From contig NZ_JAUYUS010000009.1 of NCBI RefSeq assembly GCF_030694575.1, positions 1 through 64,000 of the forward strand: 64,000 bases of DNA, written 5' to 3'. The position numbers and the translations under genes are program-made. This stretch comes from Parvibaculum sp. GTDB taxonomy: Bacteria > Pseudomonadota > Alphaproteobacteria > Parvibaculales > Parvibaculaceae. The stretch's first letter is position 1, and every line of letters starts with the position of its first letter. The notes below the pieces were generated by a model. It saw only the letters and a program-made list of their open reading frames with translations, made no database searches and was not told the DNA's origin. This document shows, piece after piece, positions 14,980-22,315 of the stretch.

Positions 14980-15346
14980 AATCATCCGTAGACGGACTTA
15001 TCCCCGCCCCGCACCCCGTCCGCCGGACGTTCCCGTCGCCAGCGCGACCCCCGCCTGCAACACTTGTCCCCGCCCTGCCCCGGCTCACCGCGCCACACTT
15101 GTCCCCGCTGTGGCGCGAACACCATGTGGCAGGAATGTATGTGGCGAGGAGGATACAGGGGGATAAGGCAGGCCCGATCTTAACTTCGGCTTCGGGATCA
15201 TCCCACCGATCCTCCGGCCCTTCGTTTTTCGACCGCTTCTGACCCGAAGTGGTCATTCGGGAGCTTTATGCCAGTTCGTCACGCCAAAGGTTTTAACCAG
15301 TAGCATGGGACGTCACGAGCCGCTCCGCTCTATCACTTCAATTGAG
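14980..15346. other. Non-coding flank of the accessory island
   Basis: The stretch lies between two convergent genes and holds no supported ORF. It contains two copies of ACACTTGTCCCCGC (near 15059 and 15094) and short ATCCCCGC-type runs. GC content drops to the right, where the island begins near 15.3 kb. A tRNA-like D-arm sequence just after the last island gene does not fold into a tRNA. Confidence 0.4.
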
Positions 15347-15748
15347 CTACTGAAACAGCTCGCGCAACCACCTGCCAAGCCGAACCCACCATTTGCGATC
15401 GTGCGCACGGGCAGTGTAGTAGACCTCCCGCCGCTTCTGCTCCGCATTGCGACCAGCCTCGATACGCGCTTCGCTCCATTGGCCTGCCCAAAGCGTCTTG
15501 CCGCCTGTAATCAAGTAGTGAGAACGACATGTCAGCTGCCAGTTTCCGACAGATGGATCGAGGGTCGGCCCGCCGGCGGTATCGCTCACCTGCCATTCCG
15601 TGGGACCGAGCGGTGTCGTCACCTTCGTTCCGCATCCGCACGCGCAAAGGTGGGCGGCGATATCGAACTCGGCGGCCACATAAAGCACTCCGGGCTTAAG
15701 GGTTTTGGGAACGTACTCCACACGTTCGAGGCGGAAAGACTCGATCAT
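15347..15748 (-). CDS. DUF6527 protein of a Ubl-conjugation operon
   Basis: The 133-aa protein matches DUF6527. It has a CACGCG zinc-knuckle-like motif at 35-40, DPSVGN at 64-69 and CRSHYLI at 74-80, the conserved Ser/Cys/His-containing core of the family. Members sit in bacterial ubiquitin-like operons. As I recall they are proposed peptidases that mature or remove the Ubl (BubE-type in the recent naming), but catalysis is inferred here. It overlaps the E2/E1 fusion gene by ATGA. Base composition and codon use differ from flanking core genes, consistent with transfer. Confidence 0.78.
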   Translation of the reverse strand: MIESFRLERVEYVPKTLKPGVLYVAAEFDIAAHLCACGCGTKVTTPLGPTEWQVSDTAGGPTLDPSVGNWQLTCRSHYLITGGKTLWAGQWSEARIEAGRNAEQKRREVYYTARAHDRKWWVRLGRWLRELFQ

Positions 15749-16932
15749 CTGGGCTCACCGTGAATCTTGAGGTCGTTGACCTTGAAGAGGAAGTGATCGA
15801 AGCCATTCTCGTCGAGATAGAACCCTTTGAGCTGCTTGTATCGAATGACGGCAAGACAGGCATTGAGAGCGTTCAGCTCGGCAGTCTGCACCGTGACTCG
15901 ATACTCGTCATCGGGATGGTCGGAAAGTTCGGCCAGGTTACGATCCCGCATCGTCTGTGCATTGGCTGGCTCATAGTAGGTGGCGCGCAGCGTGCCGTTG
16001 ATCGCATACTGCTTGCGATTGAGACCCATGCCAACATCGATGAACGGGATTTGCAACTTCATCAGCAGATCGAAAATCCCCCGCCGCGAGCTGCCCTTAT
16101 CGACGCAGACAAAGGCAAATGTCACGTCCTTCAGCTCCTCGATACAGGATTCATCGATGAATTTCGACAGGAGCGTGATGCCGTGCCGGAAGTTCTCGTA
16201 CCGCCCCTGATATACCTCAGCCTTCGAATGATCGAGTTCGCCATCATCCGCCAGTCTGCCCGGCGAACGAAAAGCGTTGTGAACATGATAGAGATCGCGG
16301 TCGAAGCCGAGGATGCGCGCGACCGGCGTCTTGGCCATGTAATCAAGCACGTACGAGCCGGTGCCGCCGAGGCCGATGATGGCGACAACCTCATTTTTGA
16401 AGAACTGTGCCAAGTCGCCGATCTCGGCGCTGCTGGTCAGCGTATCGGCGAATTTGAAGACCGATTCTTCACCTTCCGATTTCACCTGTCGGAAAGTGAG
16501 GGGAGTTACCCCATAGCGTTCCATCGCGGGGCCGCTAAGAATGGCCACGTAGCGATCGATCTTAGCGACATGATCAGGATAACCGCCAGTCGGCTTGTTC
16601 GACATCGACCGCTGCACGACCACGTCGGTGCTGATCAAGGAAAGGCTGTGTGACCCACCGGCAAGGTTGGGGATGGGCTTACCATCAAGACCGTACGGGT
16701 GCGAGCCCGCGAAGTAGATCTGATGGTTCTTCATGACAAAGCGCTTCTTGTCCGTGGACTTCAACGTGCACACGATCGCGCCCCAGCAGAGCTCGCCTTT
16801 GTCGTCGAGATAAGGAATGTCCCGGACAACCAGGTGGCCGCTGTCGAGCGCGAGCGCGTAGCCCTTCACAAGCAGCTGTTCGATGTCCTTGTTATGCTTG
16901 ACCAGTTCTTGAAACATTGAACACCATGCCAT
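15745..16932 (-). CDS. E2-like (DUF6791)/ThiF E1-like fusion protein
   Basis: This 395-aa two-domain protein has residues about 1-170 resembling DUF6791, an E2-like segment (NHQIYFAGSHPYGLDG, SNKPTGGYPDHVAKI). Residues 175-390 form a ThiF/E1 adenylation domain (IIGLGGTGSYVLDYMAKTPV, nucleotide motif GLGGTGS at 187-193; HNAFRSPG; PFIDVGMG; ELNALNACLAVIRYKQL). It should adenylate the Ubl C-terminus. No classical E1 catalytic Cys can be assigned. The start could be 16932 or the internal ATG at 16917; either overlaps the Ubl gene, implying coupling. Confidence 0.82.
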   Translation of the reverse strand: MAWCSMFQELVKHNKDIEQLLVKGYALALDSGHLVVRDIPYLDDKGELCWGAIVCTLKSTDKKRFVMKNHQIYFAGSHPYGLDGKPIPNLAGGSHSLSLISTDVVVQRSMSNKPTGGYPDHVAKIDRYVAILSGPAMERYGVTPLTFRQVKSEGEESVFKFADTLTSSAEIGDLAQFFKNEVVAIIGLGGTGSYVLDYMAKTPVARILGFDRDLYHVHNAFRSPGRLADDGELDHSKAEVYQGRYENFRHGITLLSKFIDESCIEELKDVTFAFVCVDKGSSRRGIFDLLMKLQIPFIDVGMGLNRKQYAINGTLRATYYEPANAQTMRDRNLAELSDHPDDEYRVTVQTAELNALNACLAVIRYKQLKGFYLDENGFDHFLFKVNDLKIHGEPR

Positions 16933-17155
16933 TCTTGATCTTCACAGTGCCGCCCGGCGACAGCGTGCCCTCGGGCTTGTTGCCCTGACCGCGCTTGTAG
17001 GTGACCGAATAGGTCGTCTCCGGATGCTGGGGATACTCGGGGTCCGCCAGCGTTACGAGTTCCACGTACGTCATGTCATCTTTCTCGACCTCGTACGGGG
17101 TTCCATCGATGACGATGGTGACCGTCTTTTTCTTATCCTTCTCTTCGTTGGTCAT
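16892..17155 (-). CDS. Single-domain multiubiquitin-type Ubl
   Basis: The 87-aa beta-grasp protein begins with a charged tail (NEEKDKKK), then TVTIVIDGTPYEV, YVELVTLAD and GGTVKIKNGMVFNV, the pattern of the multiubiquitin domain. Only one domain is present. The C-terminus is VSRTGQA, without Gly-Gly, so conjugation would be non-canonical or preceded by trimming. It is the substrate partner of the overlapping E2/E1 fusion and probably of DUF6527. It follows the small basic gene after a strong hairpin. Confidence 0.8.
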   Translation of the reverse strand: MTNEEKDKKKTVTIVIDGTPYEVEKDDMTYVELVTLADPEYPQHPETTYSVTYKRGQGNKPEGTLSPGGTVKIKNGMVFNVSRTGQA

Positions 17156-17181
17156 TTGCCTGTTCCTTTCGCGTCGAAGAT

Positions 17182-17211
17182 GGGTGGCAGGTTCTGCTTA
17201 ACCTGCCACCC
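17182..17211. repeat. Perfect 12-bp hairpin before the Ubl gene
   Basis: Arms 17182-17193 and 17200-17211 pair perfectly around a 6-nt loop. It lies between the small basic gene and the Ubl gene, 26 bp before the Ubl ATG. On the minus strand no T-tract follows, so an RNA-processing or translation-tuning role fits better than termination. Confidence 0.65.
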
Positions 17212-17221
17212 GCTGGATTTT

Positions 17222-17353
17222 CTACTTCTTGTCCGGACGCTGGGTGAGCGCCGAACCCGCTGCCGTCTTTGCCGCCTTACTCGCCTTCGGGTCCCGCAGG
17301 ACCTTCGACGCCGCCGAGGCAGCCTTCTTGCTGGTCACTTCCGACTTCGCCAA
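17222..17353 (-). CDS. Lys/Ala-rich 43-aa protein, first gene of the Ubl operon
   Basis: A small frame encodes AKSEVTSKKAASAASKVL followed by RDPKASKAAKTAAGSALTQR. It is basic and Ala-rich, predicted helical, and resembles short hypothetical proteins seen in many proteobacteria. The start is TTG at 17353, placed by AAGGGGGTGA (nearly a full anti-16S match) about 5 bp upstream. A GTG at 17360-17362 overlaps that element and is less likely. It sits between operator 1 and the Ubl gene and should be on the same transcript. Function unknown; DNA or RNA binding is possible from charge alone. Confidence 0.6.
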   Translation of the reverse strand: MAKSEVTSKKAASAASKVLRDPKASKAAKTAAGSALTQRPDKK

Positions 17354-17407
17354 ACCACTCACCCCCTTTCCGGGAACATTGACCTAAACGTCAAACTGGT
17401 AGTATCG

Positions 17408-17429
17408 TATCCTACGAATACGTAGGATA
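17408..17429. promoter_or_regulatory. Operator 1 (Ubl-operon side)
   Basis: TATCCTACG-AATA-CGTAGGATA has 9-bp perfect arms. On the minus strand it covers the expected -35 to -10 region ahead of the 43-aa gene. Its 18-bp core is the exact reverse complement of operator 2. The likely binder is the adjacent XRE protein. Confidence 0.75.
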
Positions 17430-17439
17430 TCCGGGTCTG

Positions 17440-17460
17440 AAAAAGCCACCTAGCGGTGGC
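17440..17460 (-). terminator. Leftward terminator between the two operators
   Basis: GCCACC-GCTA-GGTGGC forms a 6-bp stem (17445-17460) followed on the minus strand by TTTTT at 17444-17440. It would stop leftward transcripts coming from the repressor side before they reach the Ubl operon promoter, or act as an attenuator. Confidence 0.55.
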
Positions 17461-17467
17461 GGCCAGC

Positions 17468-17487
17468 ATCCTACGTATTCGTAGGAA
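17468..17487. promoter_or_regulatory. Operator 2 (repressor side)
   Basis: TCCTACG-TATT-CGTAGGA (17469-17486) has 7-bp perfect arms and is the reverse complement of the operator 1 core. Its centre is 59 bp from that of operator 1. It ends 19 bp before the XRE start codon, a position suited to autorepression. Confidence 0.75.
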
Positions 17488-17506
17488 TAACATAGTCAGG
17501 AACGTC

Positions 17507-17845
17507 GTGTCAAACAAGCCGGAGAATGGACTCGAATTTGGGGATCGGTTGCTGGCCGCCCGTGAAGCAAGGGGGCTGAACCAGACTGAGCTCGCGAAGG
17601 CATCGGGGCTGCAACCCGCCGCTATAGGGCATTTTGAAAAGAACAGGCGCAAACCGTCGTTCGCAAATGTCCGGGCGCTGGCCAAGGCCCTAGAAGTGTC
17701 GGCAGACTACCTTCTGGGACGTTCGCCCACCATGAAGGGCGCGACGACCGCATTTCGCGGTGAGGAAAATCTGTCGGCGGGCGACCGCGAACATATCCAG
17801 ATGATGATCGACCTCATCAACAAGAAGAAGGGCGGCGATGGCTAA
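17507..17845 (+). CDS. XRE-family repressor (CapH-like)
   Basis: The 112-aa protein has an HTH_3 domain at about 14-70 (RLLAAREARGLNQTELAKAS, GLQPAAIGHFEKNRRKPSF) and a charged helical C-terminal tail ending INKKKGGDG. The GTG start at 17507 follows AGGAA. It overlaps the metallopeptidase gene by 8 bp. By analogy with ImmR/ImmA of ICEBs1 and CapH/CapP of CBASS, it should bind the two flanking palindromes and be inactivated by cleavage. That mechanism is inference. The upstream in-frame ATG at 17456 lies within or before operator 2 and is unlikely. Confidence 0.82.
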   Translation: MSNKPENGLEFGDRLLAAREARGLNQTELAKASGLQPAAIGHFEKNRRKPSFANVRALAKALEVSADYLLGRSPTMKGATTAFRGEENLSAGDREHIQMMIDLINKKKGGDG

Positions 17846-18728
17846 GTTCCAGCTCACAAAGGCGCGACAGCACGGCGAGCGCGTCGCCGCCGAGAAAGGT
17901 TATACGGCTTTCCCGGTTAATCCGTTCGCCATCGCTGAGTCCGAGGGCATCCTGATCGTTCCGAAGCCCGCCGAGATCAAGGGTGTCAGCGGTGGAATCA
18001 TCTTCGATGAGGACGTGCCATCGATCTTCTATGCCACCCACATCGAGAGCGAAGGGTTCCAGCGCTTCACCGTGGCGCATGAGCTGGGACATTACTTCTT
18101 GGACGGTCATCCCGAGGAAATCCTGAAATCAGCCAAGATGCATGTCTCGCGGGCAGGCTTCCGTCAGGGCGATAATTCCATCGAACTCGAGGCCGATCAT
18201 TTTGCCTCGGGCCTCTTGATGCCCACCCAACTCGTGAAGAAGGAGCTGACATGCGGAGTCATTGGACTTGCCGGTGTCGAGCAGCTCGCCAATCGATCGC
18301 AATGCTCATTCACCGCTGCGGCGATCCGCGCCGCCGAGTGTAGCCCTTACCCAATGGCCATCGTCGTGAGCCAGGGATCGGACGTTTGTTATTGCTTCAT
18401 GTCCGAAGGCTTCAAAGGGCTCGGCAAACCGCTCACGTTTCTGCGCAAGGGCTCGCCCCTACCTCTCAGTGCGACGCGGGACTTCAACAGCGATTCAAAC
18501 AACGTTCGCTACGGCAAGCGGCAGACCACCGAGACCACACTTGCCGACTGGTTCGACGGCTCCAAGCAAATTCGCCTCGATGAGGAGATCGTCGGACTTG
18601 GCTCGTTCGGCTGTACGCTGACGGTGTTTTCGAGCGACGCCTTAGCCGAAGATCATGCTGACGAGGACGCGGATGAAGAGGCAAATCTGATCGAGAGCTA
18701 CACCCCGAAGTTCGCTTACGGTCGCTAG
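17838..18728 (+). CDS. ImmA/IrrE metallopeptidase (CapP-like)
   Basis: The 296-aa protein has a COG2856 zinc peptidase domain with HELGH at 81-85 and the third ligand in IELEADHFASGLLMP (Glu118). A C-terminal domain at about 165-270 contains several Cys residues (CYCFMSEGF) and an LGSFGCTLTVF segment like the sensor domain of CapP proteins. CapP-type enzymes cleave the cognate XRE repressor when activated by single-stranded DNA. The same switch is inferred here for the Ubl operon. The C-terminal tail is acidic (DHADEDADEE). Confidence 0.83.
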   Translation: MAKFQLTKARQHGERVAAEKGYTAFPVNPFAIAESEGILIVPKPAEIKGVSGGIIFDEDVPSIFYATHIESEGFQRFTVAHELGHYFLDGHPEEILKSAKMHVSRAGFRQGDNSIELEADHFASGLLMPTQLVKKELTCGVIGLAGVEQLANRSQCSFTAAAIRAAECSPYPMAIVVSQGSDVCYCFMSEGFKGLGKPLTFLRKGSPLPLSATRDFNSDSNNVRYGKRQTTETTLADWFDGSKQIRLDEEIVGLGSFGCTLTVFSSDALAEDHADEDADEEANLIESYTPKFAYGR

Positions 18729-19045
18729 TATCCTCAGGTCCCGGGCTACGACGTAGTCGAACAGCTCGACACGGACGAACGTCGACCTACCATTATCGCA
18801 ATGTGCCACTGTTCCGGTCGAGCTCGCGGAACGTCCGCTCTTGGCGCAAAGCAGCTCTTTAGACGGCCAGGTAAGGGGCGACGCGCGTTTGAGGCAGAAA
18901 ATATCCGTCGGACTTTTTCCATGAGGCCCTCACCCCTCCCGCCTGCACGGGCTCACGCCGCTCCGGCATCGGGACAGTGTGCATAACTACGTTCCGTTTC
19001 GCGGCGCCCCCTCACCCTTCCACGGCCGCCTTGCGGCCGTTCCCT
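18729..19045. other. Right flank of the island, no gene seen
   Basis: No supported ORF or RNA was found between the metallopeptidase stop and the first CCCTCTCCCC repeat. Island-like composition fades after about 18.9 kb. No direct repeat matching the left edge was noticed. Confidence 0.4.
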
Positions 19046-19067
19046 CCCTCTCCCCGAGGGGAGAGGG
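19046..19067. repeat. CCCTCTCCCC palindromic repeat, copy 1
   Basis: CCCTCTCCCC-GA-GGGGAGAGGG is a perfect 10-bp inverted repeat. The adjoining GCGGCGCCCCCTC is repeated near 19079. It resembles the REP-like intergenic elements common in alphaproteobacteria. Confidence 0.75.
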
Positions 19068-19126
19068 AAATGAAATTTGCGGCGCCCCCTCGCCTTCCCG
19101 CAGGCTGAAGCGGGCGGTCGAACTCG

Positions 19127-19147
19127 AAAAGGCCCACCGGGCCTTTT
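19127..19147. terminator. Bidirectional terminator downstream of the permease
   Basis: AAAAGGCCC-ACC-GGGCCTTTT has 9-bp arms and T-runs in both directions. It lies about 90 bp past the stop of the leftward permease gene. Confidence 0.65.
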
Positions 19148-19175
19148 CGCTTGCGTGCCGCAAGACGCCTCTCAC

Positions 19176-19197
19176 CCCTCTCCCCGGGGGGAGAGGG
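19176..19197. repeat. CCCTCTCCCC palindromic repeat, copy 2
   Basis: The same arms as copy 1 around GG, 130 bp away, with CTCACC directly before it as in typical family members. The two copies bracket the bidirectional terminator. Confidence 0.75.
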
Positions 19198-19234
19198 AGA
19201 TGATTTTGGCGCGCGGGCGCCGGAGGCGCGGGCC

Positions 19235-20260
19235 CTAGCCCACCGCCATGAAGCCCAGCCCGAGCAGGAAGGCGCCGGCAAGCGCCGTGCCGATGTAGAG
19301 CGCGAAGACGGGGAGGCGGACGAGCGCGAAGACGGCCATGGCGGCCGGCACGCTGGTGACGCCGCCCGCGAGCAGGAAGGCCATGCCGGCGCCGGGCGCC
19401 ATGCCCTGGTCGATGAAGCCCGAGACGAGCGGCAGCGCCGCATAGCCGTTGAGATAGGCCGGCACGCCGACCAGCACCGCCGCGCCGACGGAGAGGATGC
19501 CGTCGGTGCCGACGAAGCGGATCACCGTTTCGGCGGGAAGCCAGGCGACCAGCAGGCTTTCGAGCAGGAAGGCGAGCGCCAGCCACTTGGCCAAAAAGAG
19601 AGCGATGTCGAGCGAGGCGGTGCGGAAGGTTTCGAGCCGCGCCGGCTCCTGCCAGAAGCGCCAGGCGACGGGCTTCGGATCGCGCACCACGCCGCCGCCG
19701 CAGCCGCCATTGGAGACGCTGTCGCGCAGCACATCGGTGAAGCCGCCCGCCGCCTGCACGCCCCAGGCGAGGAAGCCGCCGAGGAGGCCGATGGCGACGG
19801 CGGCGAAGGTCTTGTAGAGCGCGAATTCCGGCCCGAGGATGCCCGAGGTCAGCACGAACATGGACGGGTCCATGATCGGCGAGGCAAGCCAGAAAGCCAT
19901 GACGGCCGGCAGCGACACGCCCATGGCGAGAAGCGCCGCGATGATCGGGATGACGCCGCAGGAGCAGAAGGGCGAGAGCGCGCCGAAGAGCGCCGCGACG
20001 AGGATCATCTGCGGCGTGGCGCCGGTGAAGACGCGCGCGATCAGATTGTCCATGCCGCTCGCCTTGGCGAAGCCCGCCAGCAGCACGGAGAAGGCGAGGA
20101 AGGGCGCGATCTTGAGGAGGCTTTGCGCGGTGAAGCCGAGGCTCGGCGCGAGTTGCGAAGGCGCGGCAAGCGCGACAAGGGCGAGAACCGCCAGAAAGGC
20201 GATCACCACGCGGTCGAAACCGATTGCCGCATCGGCCATGCGGCGGACGAGAACAGTCAT
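19235..20260 (-). CDS. ArsP/DUF318-type permease
   Basis: The 341-aa membrane protein has about eight to ten helices and the signature PFCSCGVIP (about 96-104), the paired-Cys site of ArsP-like permeases and related Cu/Zn exporters. A loop with SNGGCGGGV may add another thiol. ArsP exports trivalent organoarsenicals, but other soft metals are possible. The gene is preceded 13 bp upstream by a 25-bp sequence shared with the arsR/ATP-grasp promoter, so it should be controlled by the neighbouring ArsR. Confidence 0.82.
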   Translation of the reverse strand: MTVLVRRMADAAIGFDRVVIAFLAVLALVALAAPSQLAPSLGFTAQSLLKIAPFLAFSVLLAGFAKASGMDNLIARVFTGATPQMILVAALFGALSPFCSCGVIPIIAALLAMGVSLPAVMAFWLASPIMDPSMFVLTSGILGPEFALYKTFAAVAIGLLGGFLAWGVQAAGGFTDVLRDSVSNGGCGGGVVRDPKPVAWRFWQEPARLETFRTASLDIALFLAKWLALAFLLESLLVAWLPAETVIRFVGTDGILSVGAAVLVGVPAYLNGYAALPLVSGFIDQGMAPGAGMAFLLAGGVTSVPAAMAVFALVRLPVFALYIGTALAGAFLLGLGFMAVG

Positions 20261-20272
20261 CTTGCTATCTCC

Positions 20273-20297
20273 ATATTTCCAGTTTTACCGTTATTTG
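20273..20297. promoter_or_regulatory. ArsR operator-like site, permease copy
   Basis: ATATTTCCAGTTTTACCG followed by TTATTTG matches the site at 22017-22041 at 20 of 25 positions, with both conserved blocks intact (CCAG, CGTTAT). It lies immediately before the permease start. Confidence 0.6.
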
Positions 20298-20347
20298 AGG
20301 GTGCGAAAAATCCGGTTTCGCAGGCCGGTTTCAAACCTCTTGAATGA

Positions 20348-20692
20348 TTAGCCGGGACGGCGGCGGTCGGCGCAGCATTCGCGCATGAGGAAGCCGAGCG
20401 TCGCGTCCATGACCCTCATGTCGGCATGGCAGATGAGGGTGGTGCCGTGGCGCTCCTGCACGACGAGGCCGACCTCGATCAGGCGCCTGAGATGGAAGGA
20501 GAGCGTCGAGCGCGGGATCTCGAGCATTTCCTGCAGCTCGCCGACCGAGCGGCCCTCCGGCCCGGCGCGCACCAGCGAGCGGTAGACGGCGAGGCGGACC
20601 GGCTGTCCCAGCGCCTCGAGGCATTGGGCCGTGCGGTCGAGATCGGCGGATTTCTTCGGGGCGGCTTTCAGGGCCGTGTTTCTCGCGCTCAT
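20348..20692 (-). CDS. ArsR-family metalloregulator
   Basis: The 114-aa winged-helix repressor has a recognition helix in IPRSTLSFHLRRLIEVGLV (59-77) and a C-terminal Cys pair in RECCADRR (105-112). This resembles C-terminal thiol sensors for As(III) or similar ions. The start overlaps the ATP-grasp stop by ATGA, so both are made from one transcript. It probably represses that transcript and the permease gene through the shared 25-bp sites. The true inducer is not determinable from sequence. Confidence 0.82.
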   Translation of the reverse strand: MSARNTALKAAPKKSADLDRTAQCLEALGQPVRLAVYRSLVRAGPEGRSVGELQEMLEIPRSTLSFHLRRLIEVGLVVQERHGTTLICHADMRVMDATLGFLMRECCADRRRPG

Positions 20693-22002
20693 GCCGTTGC
20701 TCCGCAGGCGGTGTCCGTACATTGGGCCTCGGCGCAGCCGGCTTCGGCGCAGCCTGCATCCGCCGTGGCGCTTTCGAGCCAGAGGATCGGCGCGAAGCCG
20801 GCACCCTCGCCCCGGAAGCCCGTGACCTGGCCGCCATAGAGCCGCGCGGCGGCGAAGAGGGGCTCGGCGCCATGCGCCCAGACGCGGATATCGGCCTTGT
20901 GCGCGGCGGGGCCGCCCGCGAGAAGCAGGGCGCGCTGCGAGGGCTCGGCGAAACGCTGCGCGAGATAGGCCTCGCCTGCGATCTCGCACCACTTCTTGCG
21001 GCTGATCTTGTCGCCGCGATAGACGCCGCGCGAGGCATAGCCTTCCGCCGGCTTGAAGACATAGTCGCGGCGCGCTTCCCACAGGCGCTCCGCGCTGGCG
21101 GGGCCGACAAGCTCCGTATGCGGAACGGTGTCGAGGACGAGGGCGGCGTCGGCATGCGCCTCGGCGGCGAGCGCGGCGGCGGCTTCCGGGTCGCTCAAGG
21201 CGATCAGGAGGTGCTTGTCGGCAAAGGCGCGGTAGACATCGGGGTTCGGCGCGACGACGGCCTCGCCTGCTTCCCAGGCACCCTTGAGCGCGGCGCTTTC
21301 GGGCTCGCGCAGATGGAAATCGACGAGCCGGTTATAGACCATGTCGATGGGACCGCGCGGCCCGAGAAGCGCGCCGCCCTCGCGGCGAAGCGCGGCCCGG
21401 TCGAGAATGTCGACGGCGATCCCGCGCGCTTCGAGGGCGGCGGCGCAAAGGCGCATGTCGAGATAGAGGGCCTGGGTTTCGGGCGCGTCGTCCACGATGG
21501 CGACGCGGCGAAGCGGGCGGCCGGGGCGAAGCCGCGCCCAGGCATCGAGCAGCATCTCTTCCGGCGCGAAGCCTCCGCTCGTGCGCGCGGGGGAAACGGC
21601 ATCGAGGAAGAGCGGCTGCAGGAAGGCGCCGCCCGCATTGGTGTTGACCTCGATGAGCTTCGGGCCGCTGGCGGCGAGGTGGAAATCGAAACTGTTATAG
21701 GTGCCGGCGGCGGCGAGCGCCTCGGGGTCGAAGGGGCGCCGCGCCGCGCGGGCCCGCGTGGCGGCAAGCGCCAGCAGCAGCGCACCGACGGCACGGGCGC
21801 GATGGAAGAGATCGTCGCGCAGGGAGGTGGGCAGAAAGAGCGGCTGCCCGGCCGACAGCGCCTCGAGCTCGCCCGCCGCGGAAGCCCCCGCCTCCGCCCC
21901 GAGCCGCGCGGCAGCGGCGGCCTGAAGTGCGGCACGCTCCAGCGGCAGGCAGAAACATTCCTCGTTGAGGCGGGCGATGGTGGCGACGTCGATGGGCTGC
22001 AT
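20689..22002 (-). CDS. ATP-grasp-like protein with Cys-rich tail
   Basis: The 437-aa protein resembles glutathionylspermidine/glutathione synthetase-like ATP-grasp proteins. It shows LIEVNTNAGGAFLQPLFLD (116-134), MVYNRLVDFHL, ADKHLLIALSD and DYVFKPAEGYASRGVYRG (313-330). Residues 418-433 form a tail with four regularly spaced Cys (CAEAGCAEAQC then TDTAC), as in metal-binding tails. It may ligate an amino acid to a thiol or peptide in metal tolerance, which is an inference from co-operonic arsR and the ArsP-like permease. The start MQPIDVATIARL was chosen since the upstream frame runs across the operator. Confidence 0.65.
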   Translation of the reverse strand: MQPIDVATIARLNEECFCLPLERAALQAAAAARLGAEAGASAAGELEALSAGQPLFLPTSLRDDLFHRARAVGALLLALAATRARAARRPFDPEALAAAGTYNSFDFHLAASGPKLIEVNTNAGGAFLQPLFLDAVSPARTSGGFAPEEMLLDAWARLRPGRPLRRVAIVDDAPETQALYLDMRLCAAALEARGIAVDILDRAALRREGGALLGPRGPIDMVYNRLVDFHLREPESAALKGAWEAGEAVVAPNPDVYRAFADKHLLIALSDPEAAAALAAEAHADAALVLDTVPHTELVGPASAERLWEARRDYVFKPAEGYASRGVYRGDKISRKKWCEIAGEAYLAQRFAEPSQRALLLAGGPAAHKADIRVWAHGAEPLFAAARLYGGQVTGFRGEGAGFAPILWLESATADAGCAEAGCAEAQCTDTACGATA

Positions 22003-22016
22003 GGGGCACTCTGACG

Positions 22017-22041
22017 ATATAACCAGAATTATCGTTATATG
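22017..22041. promoter_or_regulatory. ArsR operator-like site, ATP-grasp/arsR copy
   Basis: ATATAACCAGAATTATCG followed by TTATATG contains ATATAAC and GTTATAT as perfect 7-bp arms. It lies 15 bp before the ATP-grasp start and shares its blocks with 20273-20297. Confidence 0.65.
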
Positions 22042-22168
22042 GGTGGAAGGAGGCCGACGGCAAGGTTTTTTTTGCGGGGCGGCCTTGTACCGGCCGGCAG
22101 GCACCCCATTTTCCAGTTGCGAATTGTTCGCAACTAGGCATAATGCCGGAAATCGCGCGAGGTGGATC

Positions 22169-22315
22169 ATGTCGCTCAGGGAAAGCATCGTCAGGGAATT
22201 GTCGCTCGAGGAATTGCTGGTGGACCCGGTGGTGCGCCTCGTGATGCGCCGCGACGGCGTCCATGAACGCGACATCCGCGCGCTGGCGGAGCGGGCGGCG
22301 GAGAAGCGGGCCTGA
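22169..22315 (+). CDS. Small conserved hypothetical protein (48 aa)
   Basis: The product begins MSLRESIVRELSLEELLVDP and continues with a VMRRDGVHERDIRALAERA helix. It is soluble, acidic/basic amphipathic and has no Cys. A GAGGTGG element 4 bp before the ATG supports translation. Similar short proteins exist in other alphaproteobacteria by my recollection. No function can be given. It stands alone between divergent and convergent neighbours. Confidence 0.55.
   Translation: MSLRESIVRELSLEELLVDPVVRLVMRRDGVHERDIRALAERAAEKRA

What the first reader, a model, noticed from the sequence alone, without database searches (positions are those of the whole stretch)
15347..18728. Compact ubiquitin-like conjugation island under an XRE/ImmA switch
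Four leftward genes (43-aa basic protein, single-domain multiubiquitin-type Ubl, E2-like/ThiF fusion, DUF6527) are divergent from an XRE repressor overlapping an ImmA/IrrE peptidase. The sequence shows the motifs and overlaps directly. From family knowledge, Ubl/E1/E2 operons are linked to antiphage defence, and CapH/CapP-type XRE-peptidase pairs switch on defence operons after DNA damage. The inference is a damage-inducible Ubl defence module. Unusual points are the lack of a Gly-Gly Ubl tail, the fused E2/E1, no clear E1 Cys, and the extra 43-aa gene.
Basis: partly seen in the sequence, partly recalled or inferred. Interest (0 to 1): 0.88.

Follow-up and report, generated by a model that had tools for sequence, protein, structure and literature searches.

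The report
DNA-damage-switched bacterial ubiquitin-like operon
This is a small mobile bacterial operon that makes a ubiquitin-like protein and its activating enzyme under a switch known to sense damaged DNA; the operon type was first described in 2006 and is probably a phage-defence or stress module, and what is new here is evidence on its protein tail, its control sites and a travelling small first gene.

Summary
The window carries DUF6527, a DUF6791-ThiF (E1-like) protein, a one-domain Multi_ubiq protein and a 43-aa basic ORF, divergent from CapH (XRE) and CapP (ImmA/M78). The kind is known: it is the 'polyUbl' operon type (row 6e, 'domain X' subtype) of Iyer 2006, and CapHP or CapW next to the related Bub operons was published in 2026. 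It is a sister of Bub: same Ubl family, E1 and DUF6527, but no JAB protease and no separate Prok-E2_E gene. The points flagged as odd (no Gly-Gly, no E1 Cys, fusion) are family norms. An E2 fold for DUF6791 is suggested by AlphaFold, not confirmed. New here: (1) the Ubl tail T-x-x-Ser-COOH (Ala in the window) is conserved across five phyla, and codon patterns in the 26-nt Ubl/E1 overlap show selection in the Ubl frame; (2) two 20-bp palindromes, unique in the genome, look like CapH operators and are conserved in two orthologues; (3) the 43-aa gene also leads unrelated WYL- or CapHP-controlled operons (nuclease-helicase, short Argonaute, SoFic). Most likely: ssDNA activates CapP, CapH is cut, the Ubl is adenylated and attached to targets. 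Defence is inferred.

The parts
15347..15748 (-). DUF6527 protein, 133 aa, predicted Zn site C35-x-C37-x-C39 ... C74-x2-H77
   Evidence: PF20137 5.7e-22; ligands invariant in seven sequences and conserved across the 39-row alignment; AF2 pLDDT 79 with no PDB fold match
15745..16917 (-). DUF6791-ThiF fusion (E1-like adenylating enzyme), 390 aa; DUF6791 about residues 10-160, ThiF 165-385
   Evidence: PF20590, PF00899; invariant G182-x-GG-x-G187, D206, N214, R217, K232, D273, no invariant Cys; VIA Z 21.4 to BubCD E1 domain
16892..16917 (-). 26-nt overlap of Ubl end and E1 start
   Evidence: ATG/GTG at exactly 26 nt in 37 of 39 loci; dual-coding constraint
16892..17155 (-). Ubl (Multi_ubiq), 87 aa, tail F-N-V-S-R-T-G-Q-A
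   Evidence: PF14452 7.9e-17; family profile matches PDB 9cd2 multi-ubiquitin protein 5.1e-19 through its last residue
17182..17211 (-). stable hairpin between the 43-aa gene and the Ubl gene
   Evidence: 12-bp arms; z -5.2, with equally placed hairpins in L037 (-3.0) and L038 (-4.3)
17222..17353 (-). 43-aa Lys/Ala-rich basic protein, TTG start
   Evidence: same place in L037 and L038; family leads other switch-controlled operons
17409..17428 (.). palindrome O1 ATCCTACGAATACGTAGGAT, predicted CapH operator on the operon side
   Evidence: only O1 and O2 in 3.8 Mb at up to 1 mismatch; conserved in L037 and L038
17445..17460 (-). terminator-like hairpin between the two operators
   Evidence: same element visible in L037 and L038 sequences
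17468..17487 (.). palindrome O2 ATCCTACGTATTCGTAGGAA, predicted CapH operator on the capH side
17507..17845 (+). CapH-like XRE repressor, 112 aa, GTG start
   Evidence: PADLOC capH 7.3e-29
17838..18728 (+). CapP-like ImmA/IrrE (M78) peptidase, 296 aa, HELGH motif; overlaps capH by 8 nt
   Evidence: PADLOC capP 1.1e-62; PF06114

Best explanation
The locus is a horizontally acquired, JAB-less sister of the Bub/polyUbl ubiquitin-like operons, controlled by a CapH-CapP DNA-damage switch. Shown by sequence: a CapH/CapP pair divergent from the operon, two matching palindromes between them, an E1 domain with a complete adenylation site, a Multi_ubiq Ubl whose C-terminus is selected, and a protein with conserved Zn-type ligands. 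Inferred: CapH holds both promoters through O1 and O2; ssDNA from damage or phage replication activates CapP, which cuts CapH; the operon is then expressed; the E1 domain adenylates the C-terminal carboxylate of the Ubl (Ala here, Ser elsewhere); with no conserved Cys and no terminal glycine, the acyl group passes to a target lysine directly or by a non-Cys nucleophile, perhaps guided by the possibly E2-like DUF6791 domain; DUF6527 acts as target adaptor or regulator. No JAB is needed for maturation because the tail is encoded mature. The modified target then hampers phage or helps survive damage.
For: CapH/CapP models 98.9 and 209.8 bits; operators unique in the genome and conserved in orthologues; CapHP in 11 and WYL in 5 of 39 homologous loci, plus a probable CapKS pair; adenylation residues invariant with closest solved relative BubCD by sequence (1.6e-10) and fold (Z 21.4); same-genus genomes hold canonical Bub with the same Ubl and DUF6527 families; tail T-x-x-S selected in the Ubl frame: E1 codon 4 wobble A in 35/37, codon 7 wobble T in 36/37, codon 8 first base C in 37/37 while residue 8 varies among R/H/L/P; Bub tails instead mostly carry T-E-G, at the end or followed by an extension or an E2 domain; GC 0.54-0.60 for the operon proteins and capHP against 0.66-0.70 in flanks. 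Literature: PMC1779556 row 6e; PMC13373217 (CapHP/CapW at 219 of 544 Bub operons).
Against: No experiment on this subtype was found. No target, no catalytic Cys, and the E2 homology of DUF6791 failed profile tests. [quoted passage not shown] The window's own tail ends in Ala, the only exception in 39. Ubl adenylation could serve signalling rather than conjugation.
Confidence: 0.6

Rival explanations
1. Adenylation without protein conjugation: the E1 activates the Ubl C-terminus as MccB does a peptide, or makes a Ubl-AMP or Ubl oligomer signal, and the Ubl acts as a stress-induced scaffold.
For: No conserved Cys anywhere in the fusion; MccB is among the sequence and fold relatives; the tail ends in Ser, not Gly.
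Against: The closest relative by sequence and fold is BubCD from a full Ubl-E1-E2-DUB operon; a partner gene with Zn-type ligands is kept.
Confidence: 0.2
2. A general DNA-damage response module rather than phage defence, with the same biochemistry.
For: Damage-type switches dominate; many homologous loci sit with RecB-like nucleases, UvrD helicases, RmuC or DNA-repair exonuclease genes.
Against: Patchy, plasmid-rich distribution (116 plasmid records); relatives of the leader gene also head short-Argonaute and SoFic defence operons.
Confidence: 0.35
3. A sulphur-carrier pathway of the ThiS/MoaD kind.
For: ThiF-family E1 and beta-grasp-family Ubl.
Against: No Gly-Gly tail; no rhodanese and no recurring metabolic enzyme in the neighbourhoods read.
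Confidence: 0.03

Closest known systems
polyUbl operons, type 6e with 'domain X' (Iyer, Burroughs and Aravind 2006, PMC1779556)
   Same: Ubl of one to three repeats; E1 with an uncharacterised N-terminal domain in place of JAB; metal-binding third protein; sporadic distribution
   Different: Regulation, the selected tail and the leader gene are not mentioned in the passages read; domain X was not assigned a fold there
Bub operons (BubA, BubB, BubCD; Gong 2025, Ye 2026; as cited in PMC13373217)
   Same: PF14452 Ubl, homologous E1, DUF6527 in the same-genus Bub loci, CapHP or CapW control
   Different: No JAB domain, no Prok-E2_E gene, tail T-x-x-S/A instead of T-E-G
CapH-CapP switch (Lau 2022, as described in PMC13373217)
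   Same: XRE repressor and M78 peptidase in overlapping genes, divergent from the operon, palindromic sites between
   Different: Controls a Ubl/E1 operon of the DUF6791 subtype rather than CBASS
Cap2 of type II CBASS
   Same: E1 domain with an N-terminal extra domain, fold hit 7to3
   Different: No nucleotidyltransferase among the operon genes; no conserved E2 Cys

Membership tests
polyUbl type 6e, domain-X subtype | Ubl protein of one to three Multi_ubiq repeats | tested here: met
   PF14452 61.7 bits, cut-off 24.5
polyUbl type 6e, domain-X subtype | E1 domain with a non-JAB N-terminal domain | tested here: met
   PF20590 142.5 bits plus ThiF
polyUbl type 6e, domain-X subtype | metal-binding partner, C-x3-C-x35-38-H-x2-C in the paper | tested here: inconclusive
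   C35-x3-C39-x34-C74-x2-H77 conserved; similar but the last two ligands are in the other order
Bub (BubA/BubB/BubCD) | E1 domain homologous to BubCD | tested here: met
   1.6e-10, Z 21.4 over 208 residues, rmsd 2.6
Bub (BubA/BubB/BubCD) | JAB domain fused to the E1 | tested here: not met
   N-terminus is DUF6791; Prok-JAB is found in the true Bub protein of L036 but not here
Bub (BubA/BubB/BubCD) | separate Prok-E2_E gene between Ubl and E1 | tested here: not met
   Ubl and E1 genes overlap; no Prok-E2_E hit in the operon, present in L035 and L036
E2-E1 fusion | E2/RWD fold of the N-terminal domain | tested here: inconclusive
   AF2 order H10-18, four strands 21-70, H116-135; hhalign to Prok-E2_E not above shuffles; no PDB sequence match
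E2-E1 fusion | catalytic Cys in E2 or E1 | tested here: not met
   no invariant Cys in 12, 22 or 39 sequences
canonical Ubl | C-terminal glycine | tested here: not met
   Ser in 38 of 39 loci, Ala in the window
CapH-CapP switch | CapH and CapP homologues next to an operon promoter | tested here: met
CapH-CapP switch | CapH operators in the promoter region | tested here: inconclusive
   two conserved palindromes unique in the genome; binding not tested
CapH-CapP switch | ssDNA-activated cleavage of CapH | not testable with these tools
   needs biochemistry

The most novel reading that the evidence does not exclude
A protein-ligation pathway that works without a glycine tail, without an E1 or E2 cysteine and without a deconjugating JAB: the E1 adenylates a C-terminal Ser/Ala of the Ubl, kept by selection inside an overlapping gene, and an E2-like but Cys-less domain guides direct transfer; the pathway is one of several effectors plugged behind the same DNA-damage switches together with a portable 43-aa leader gene.
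Probability: 0.35. Interest if true: 0.75.

Novelty: new member of a known kind. Interest (0 to 1): 0.5.

Why it matters
It gives a very compact (about 3.4 kb) example of a bacterial ubiquitin-like system with its control region readable base by base. The selected T-x-x-Ser tail and the missing cysteines make a sharp, testable question: can an E1 with no thioester partner conjugate a Ubl? The 43-aa leader gene, if shared by damage-switched defence operons, would be a handle for finding new ones.

Tried and rejected
Homology of DUF6791 to Prok-E2_E: hhalign local and global scores lie within column shuffles; a visual HP...DG...I resemblance is therefore not claimed. DUF6791 profile against PDB sequences: nothing credible. 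DUF6527 model: no Foldseek or VIA match worth reporting, which does not prove a new fold. The VIA rows for the fusion model cover mainly residues 142-384, so the N-terminal domain is untested there. Phage records: no relative; IMG/VR: three clear loci and one short partial match. tblastn of the 43-aa protein in plasmids found nothing, although L037 and L038, both plasmid records, contain it; I put this down to the low-complexity filter. Three ImmA genes first counted as CapP (L040, L045, L054) fit PADLOC PD-Lambda-2_B better and were removed from the tally. The Bub papers of 2025 and 2026 are not held, so whether they include the DUF6791 subtype could not be checked; PDB 9cd2, named a multi-ubiquitin domain protein, suggests close relatives were studied. 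A search for PADLOC E1-E2 proteins to obtain bacterial E2 domains returned mostly plain ThiF/MoeB hits and was not used.
Full report
Observation. The leftward genes are a 43-aa Lys/Ala-rich ORF (17222-17353, TTG start behind a good ribosome-binding site), a one-domain Multi_ubiq protein (16892-17155), a DUF6791-ThiF fusion (15745-16917) and DUF6527 (15347-15748). The rightward pair is CapH (17507-17845) and CapP (17838-18728). PADLOC gives capH 98 bits and capP 210 bits. The E1 start at 16932 given by simple ORF finding is probably wrong: 37 of 39 homologous loci keep a start codon exactly 26 nt inside the Ubl gene, which in the window is 16917.

Distribution. DUF6791 is rare and patchy: 6 of 385 alphaproteobacterial genomes, 8 of 398 of the phylum, both counts including the window's own genome, 116 plasmid records, no phage record. 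The order Ubl-E1-DUF6527 was read in loci from Pseudomonadota, Bacteroidota, Cyanobacteriota, Actinomycetota and Bacillota. Among 27 genomes of the window's genus, Multi_ubiq occurs in three; the other two carry a different, canonical Bub operon. The operon protein genes and capHP have GC 0.54-0.60 (the 43-aa ORF 0.65) against 0.66-0.70 in the flanks, and in the sister genome with the closest flank homology stops at 15167 and resumes at 22194 with other DNA between. The cassette therefore looks acquired and sits in a variable spot.

Relation to known systems. Iyer, Burroughs and Aravind (2006, PMC1779556) described row 6e: polyUbl proteins of one to three repeats, an E1 usually fused to JAB but in a subset to an unassigned 'domain X', and a metal-binding protein. 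The window fits the domain-X subset. The JAB form is Bub: the same-genus protein in L036 matches PDB Citrobacter BubCD over nearly its whole length (1.7e-87), and its operon holds PF14452, Prok-E2_E, JAB-ThiF and DUF6527. So the window operon is a sister of Bub with DUF6791 in place of JAB and without Prok-E2_E. Its E1 is closest to BubCD by sequence and fold. PMC13373217 reports CapW or CapHP beside 219 of 544 Bub operons and says that phage protection by Bub has not been demonstrated. Control of this kind of operon by damage switches is therefore not new in kind.

The E1 and its partner domain. The adenylation site is complete: G182-x-G-G-x-G187, D206, N214, R217, K232 and D273 are invariant; the correspondence to MoeB G41, R73, K86 and D130 is my assignment from family knowledge, with the MoeB residues as listed in PMC12355090. 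No Cys is invariant in either domain. AlphaFold (seven sequences, pLDDT 75) gives helix, four strands, long helix for DUF6791, the order of an E2 or RWD domain, but profile-profile tests against Prok-E2_E gave scores within shuffles. E2-like is a reasonable lead, not a result.

The Ubl tail. The 39 tails share V-x-x-T-x-x-S at the end (Ser for Thr in two, Ala for Val in one), with Ala at the last place only in the window. The last codons overlap the E1 start in another frame, which allows a test. In the 37 loci with the 26-nt overlap, E1 codon 4 has A at its third base in 35 although residue 4 varies; codon 7 has T at its third base in 36; codon 8 begins with C in all 37 although the residue is R, H, L or P. 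Many of these genomes are GC-rich, where a wobble A or T is not favoured, so the pattern is not explained by the E1 frame; it keeps the Thr and the final Ser of the Ubl. The sequences are related, so the counts are not independent, but the loci span five phyla. The solved multi-ubiquitin protein 9cd2 ends in the same way. Canonical Bub Ubls mostly carry T-E-G, sometimes followed by extra residues or an E2 domain. Loss of JAB thus goes with a tail that is encoded mature.

The switch. Two palindromes, ATCCTACG-N4-CGTAGGA(T/A), lie 59 bp apart between the divergent genes. At up to one mismatch they occur nowhere else in 3.8 Mb, and a matching pair stands at nearly the same spacing in the Rhizobium leguminosarum and Ensifer orthologues (L037, L038). 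Other CapHP loci have their own palindromes. They are the likely CapH operators. By HMM tally of 39 loci, 11 have CapH plus CapP, 5 a divergent WYL protein at the operon, 1 a probable CapK-CapS pair (L044: HATPase protein plus winged-helix protein), 7 an ImmA-UvrD helicase directly upstream, 3 a PD-Lambda-2-like pair, 1 (L056) an uncertain CapP fragment, and 11 none recognised. Only four M78 genes exist in the window's whole genome, so adjacency here is unlikely to be chance.

The 43-aa gene. It is in the same place in the two closest orthologues, yet an 81% identical copy in a same-genus genome leads a PD-(D/E)XK nuclease and UvrD-type helicase operon under a WYL regulator (L079; domain calls made on the similar operon L119). 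A profile search found the family in 15 of 385 alphaproteobacterial genomes. Outside the Ubl operons, it stands first behind a divergent WYL or CapHP regulator in L079, L119 (nuclease and helicase), L123 (TIR-APAZ and short Argonaute), L126 (SoFic) and L125 (CapHP). Other neighbourhoods (L118, L120, L121, L122, L124 and the weaker matches) show no such setting, so the link is notable but not exclusive. Other Ubl loci carry different small proteins at the same first place, such as DUF2188 in L053 and L045.

Mechanism and limits. The likely chain is: ssDNA activates CapP, CapH is cleaved, both promoters fire, the E1 adenylates the Ubl tail, and the Ubl is moved to a target, with DUF6527 as adaptor or regulator. 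The presence of the switch genes and of an intact adenylation site is read from sequence; cleavage, adenylation, transfer and phage defence are inferred. My confidence: switch about 0.85, adenylation about 0.75, conjugation about 0.6, phage defence about 0.5.

Noticed in passing
L079 8167-8313; L119 6036-6179; L123 2379-2642; L126 1971-2138; L125 5999-6145: Relatives of the window's 43-aa gene are the first gene of unrelated operons behind divergent WYL or CapHP regulators: nuclease-helicase, TIR-APAZ/short Argonaute, SoFic; a possible marker of damage-switched defence operons.
   Followed up: partly
window 17182-17211: Very stable RNA hairpin between the 43-aa gene and the Ubl gene, with different sequence but the same place in L037 and L038; no U-tract on the operon strand.
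   Followed up: partly
window 17445-17460: Terminator-like hairpin plus T-run pointing to the operon between the two predicted operators, also visible in L037 and L038; could be an attenuator or insulator.
   Followed up: no
L023, L029, L030, L046, L050, L052, L057: Seven polyUbl loci have a protein of about 1130 aa with an M78/ImmA-like part directly upstream in the same direction, annotated UvrD helicase where annotation exists; a recurrent ImmA-helicase-Ubl arrangement.
   Followed up: no
L036 5309-9115; L035 5179-7847: Two same-genus genomes carry canonical Bub operons (Ubl, Prok-E2_E, JAB-E1, DUF6527); in L036 the divergent regulator is a single XRE-ImmA fusion of 362 aa.
   Followed up: partly
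L040 4649-6090; L045 2405-3855; L054 2379-3900: Three polyUbl loci sit next to a PD-Lambda-2_B-like HigA/ImmA protein with a small partner gene.
   Followed up: no
L044 10482-12148: The Cytobacillus polyUbl operon with a probable CapKS pair is followed by DarT and macro-domain (DarTG-like) genes.
   Followed up: no
window 18990-19230: GC-rich intergenic palindromic repeat (CTCTCCCC-GGGGAGAG) with similar copies in sister-genome loci L095 and L096.
   Followed up: no
window 15167-22194: Variable spot downstream of a sigma-54-type response regulator gene; sister genomes hold different DNA there.
   Followed up: partly
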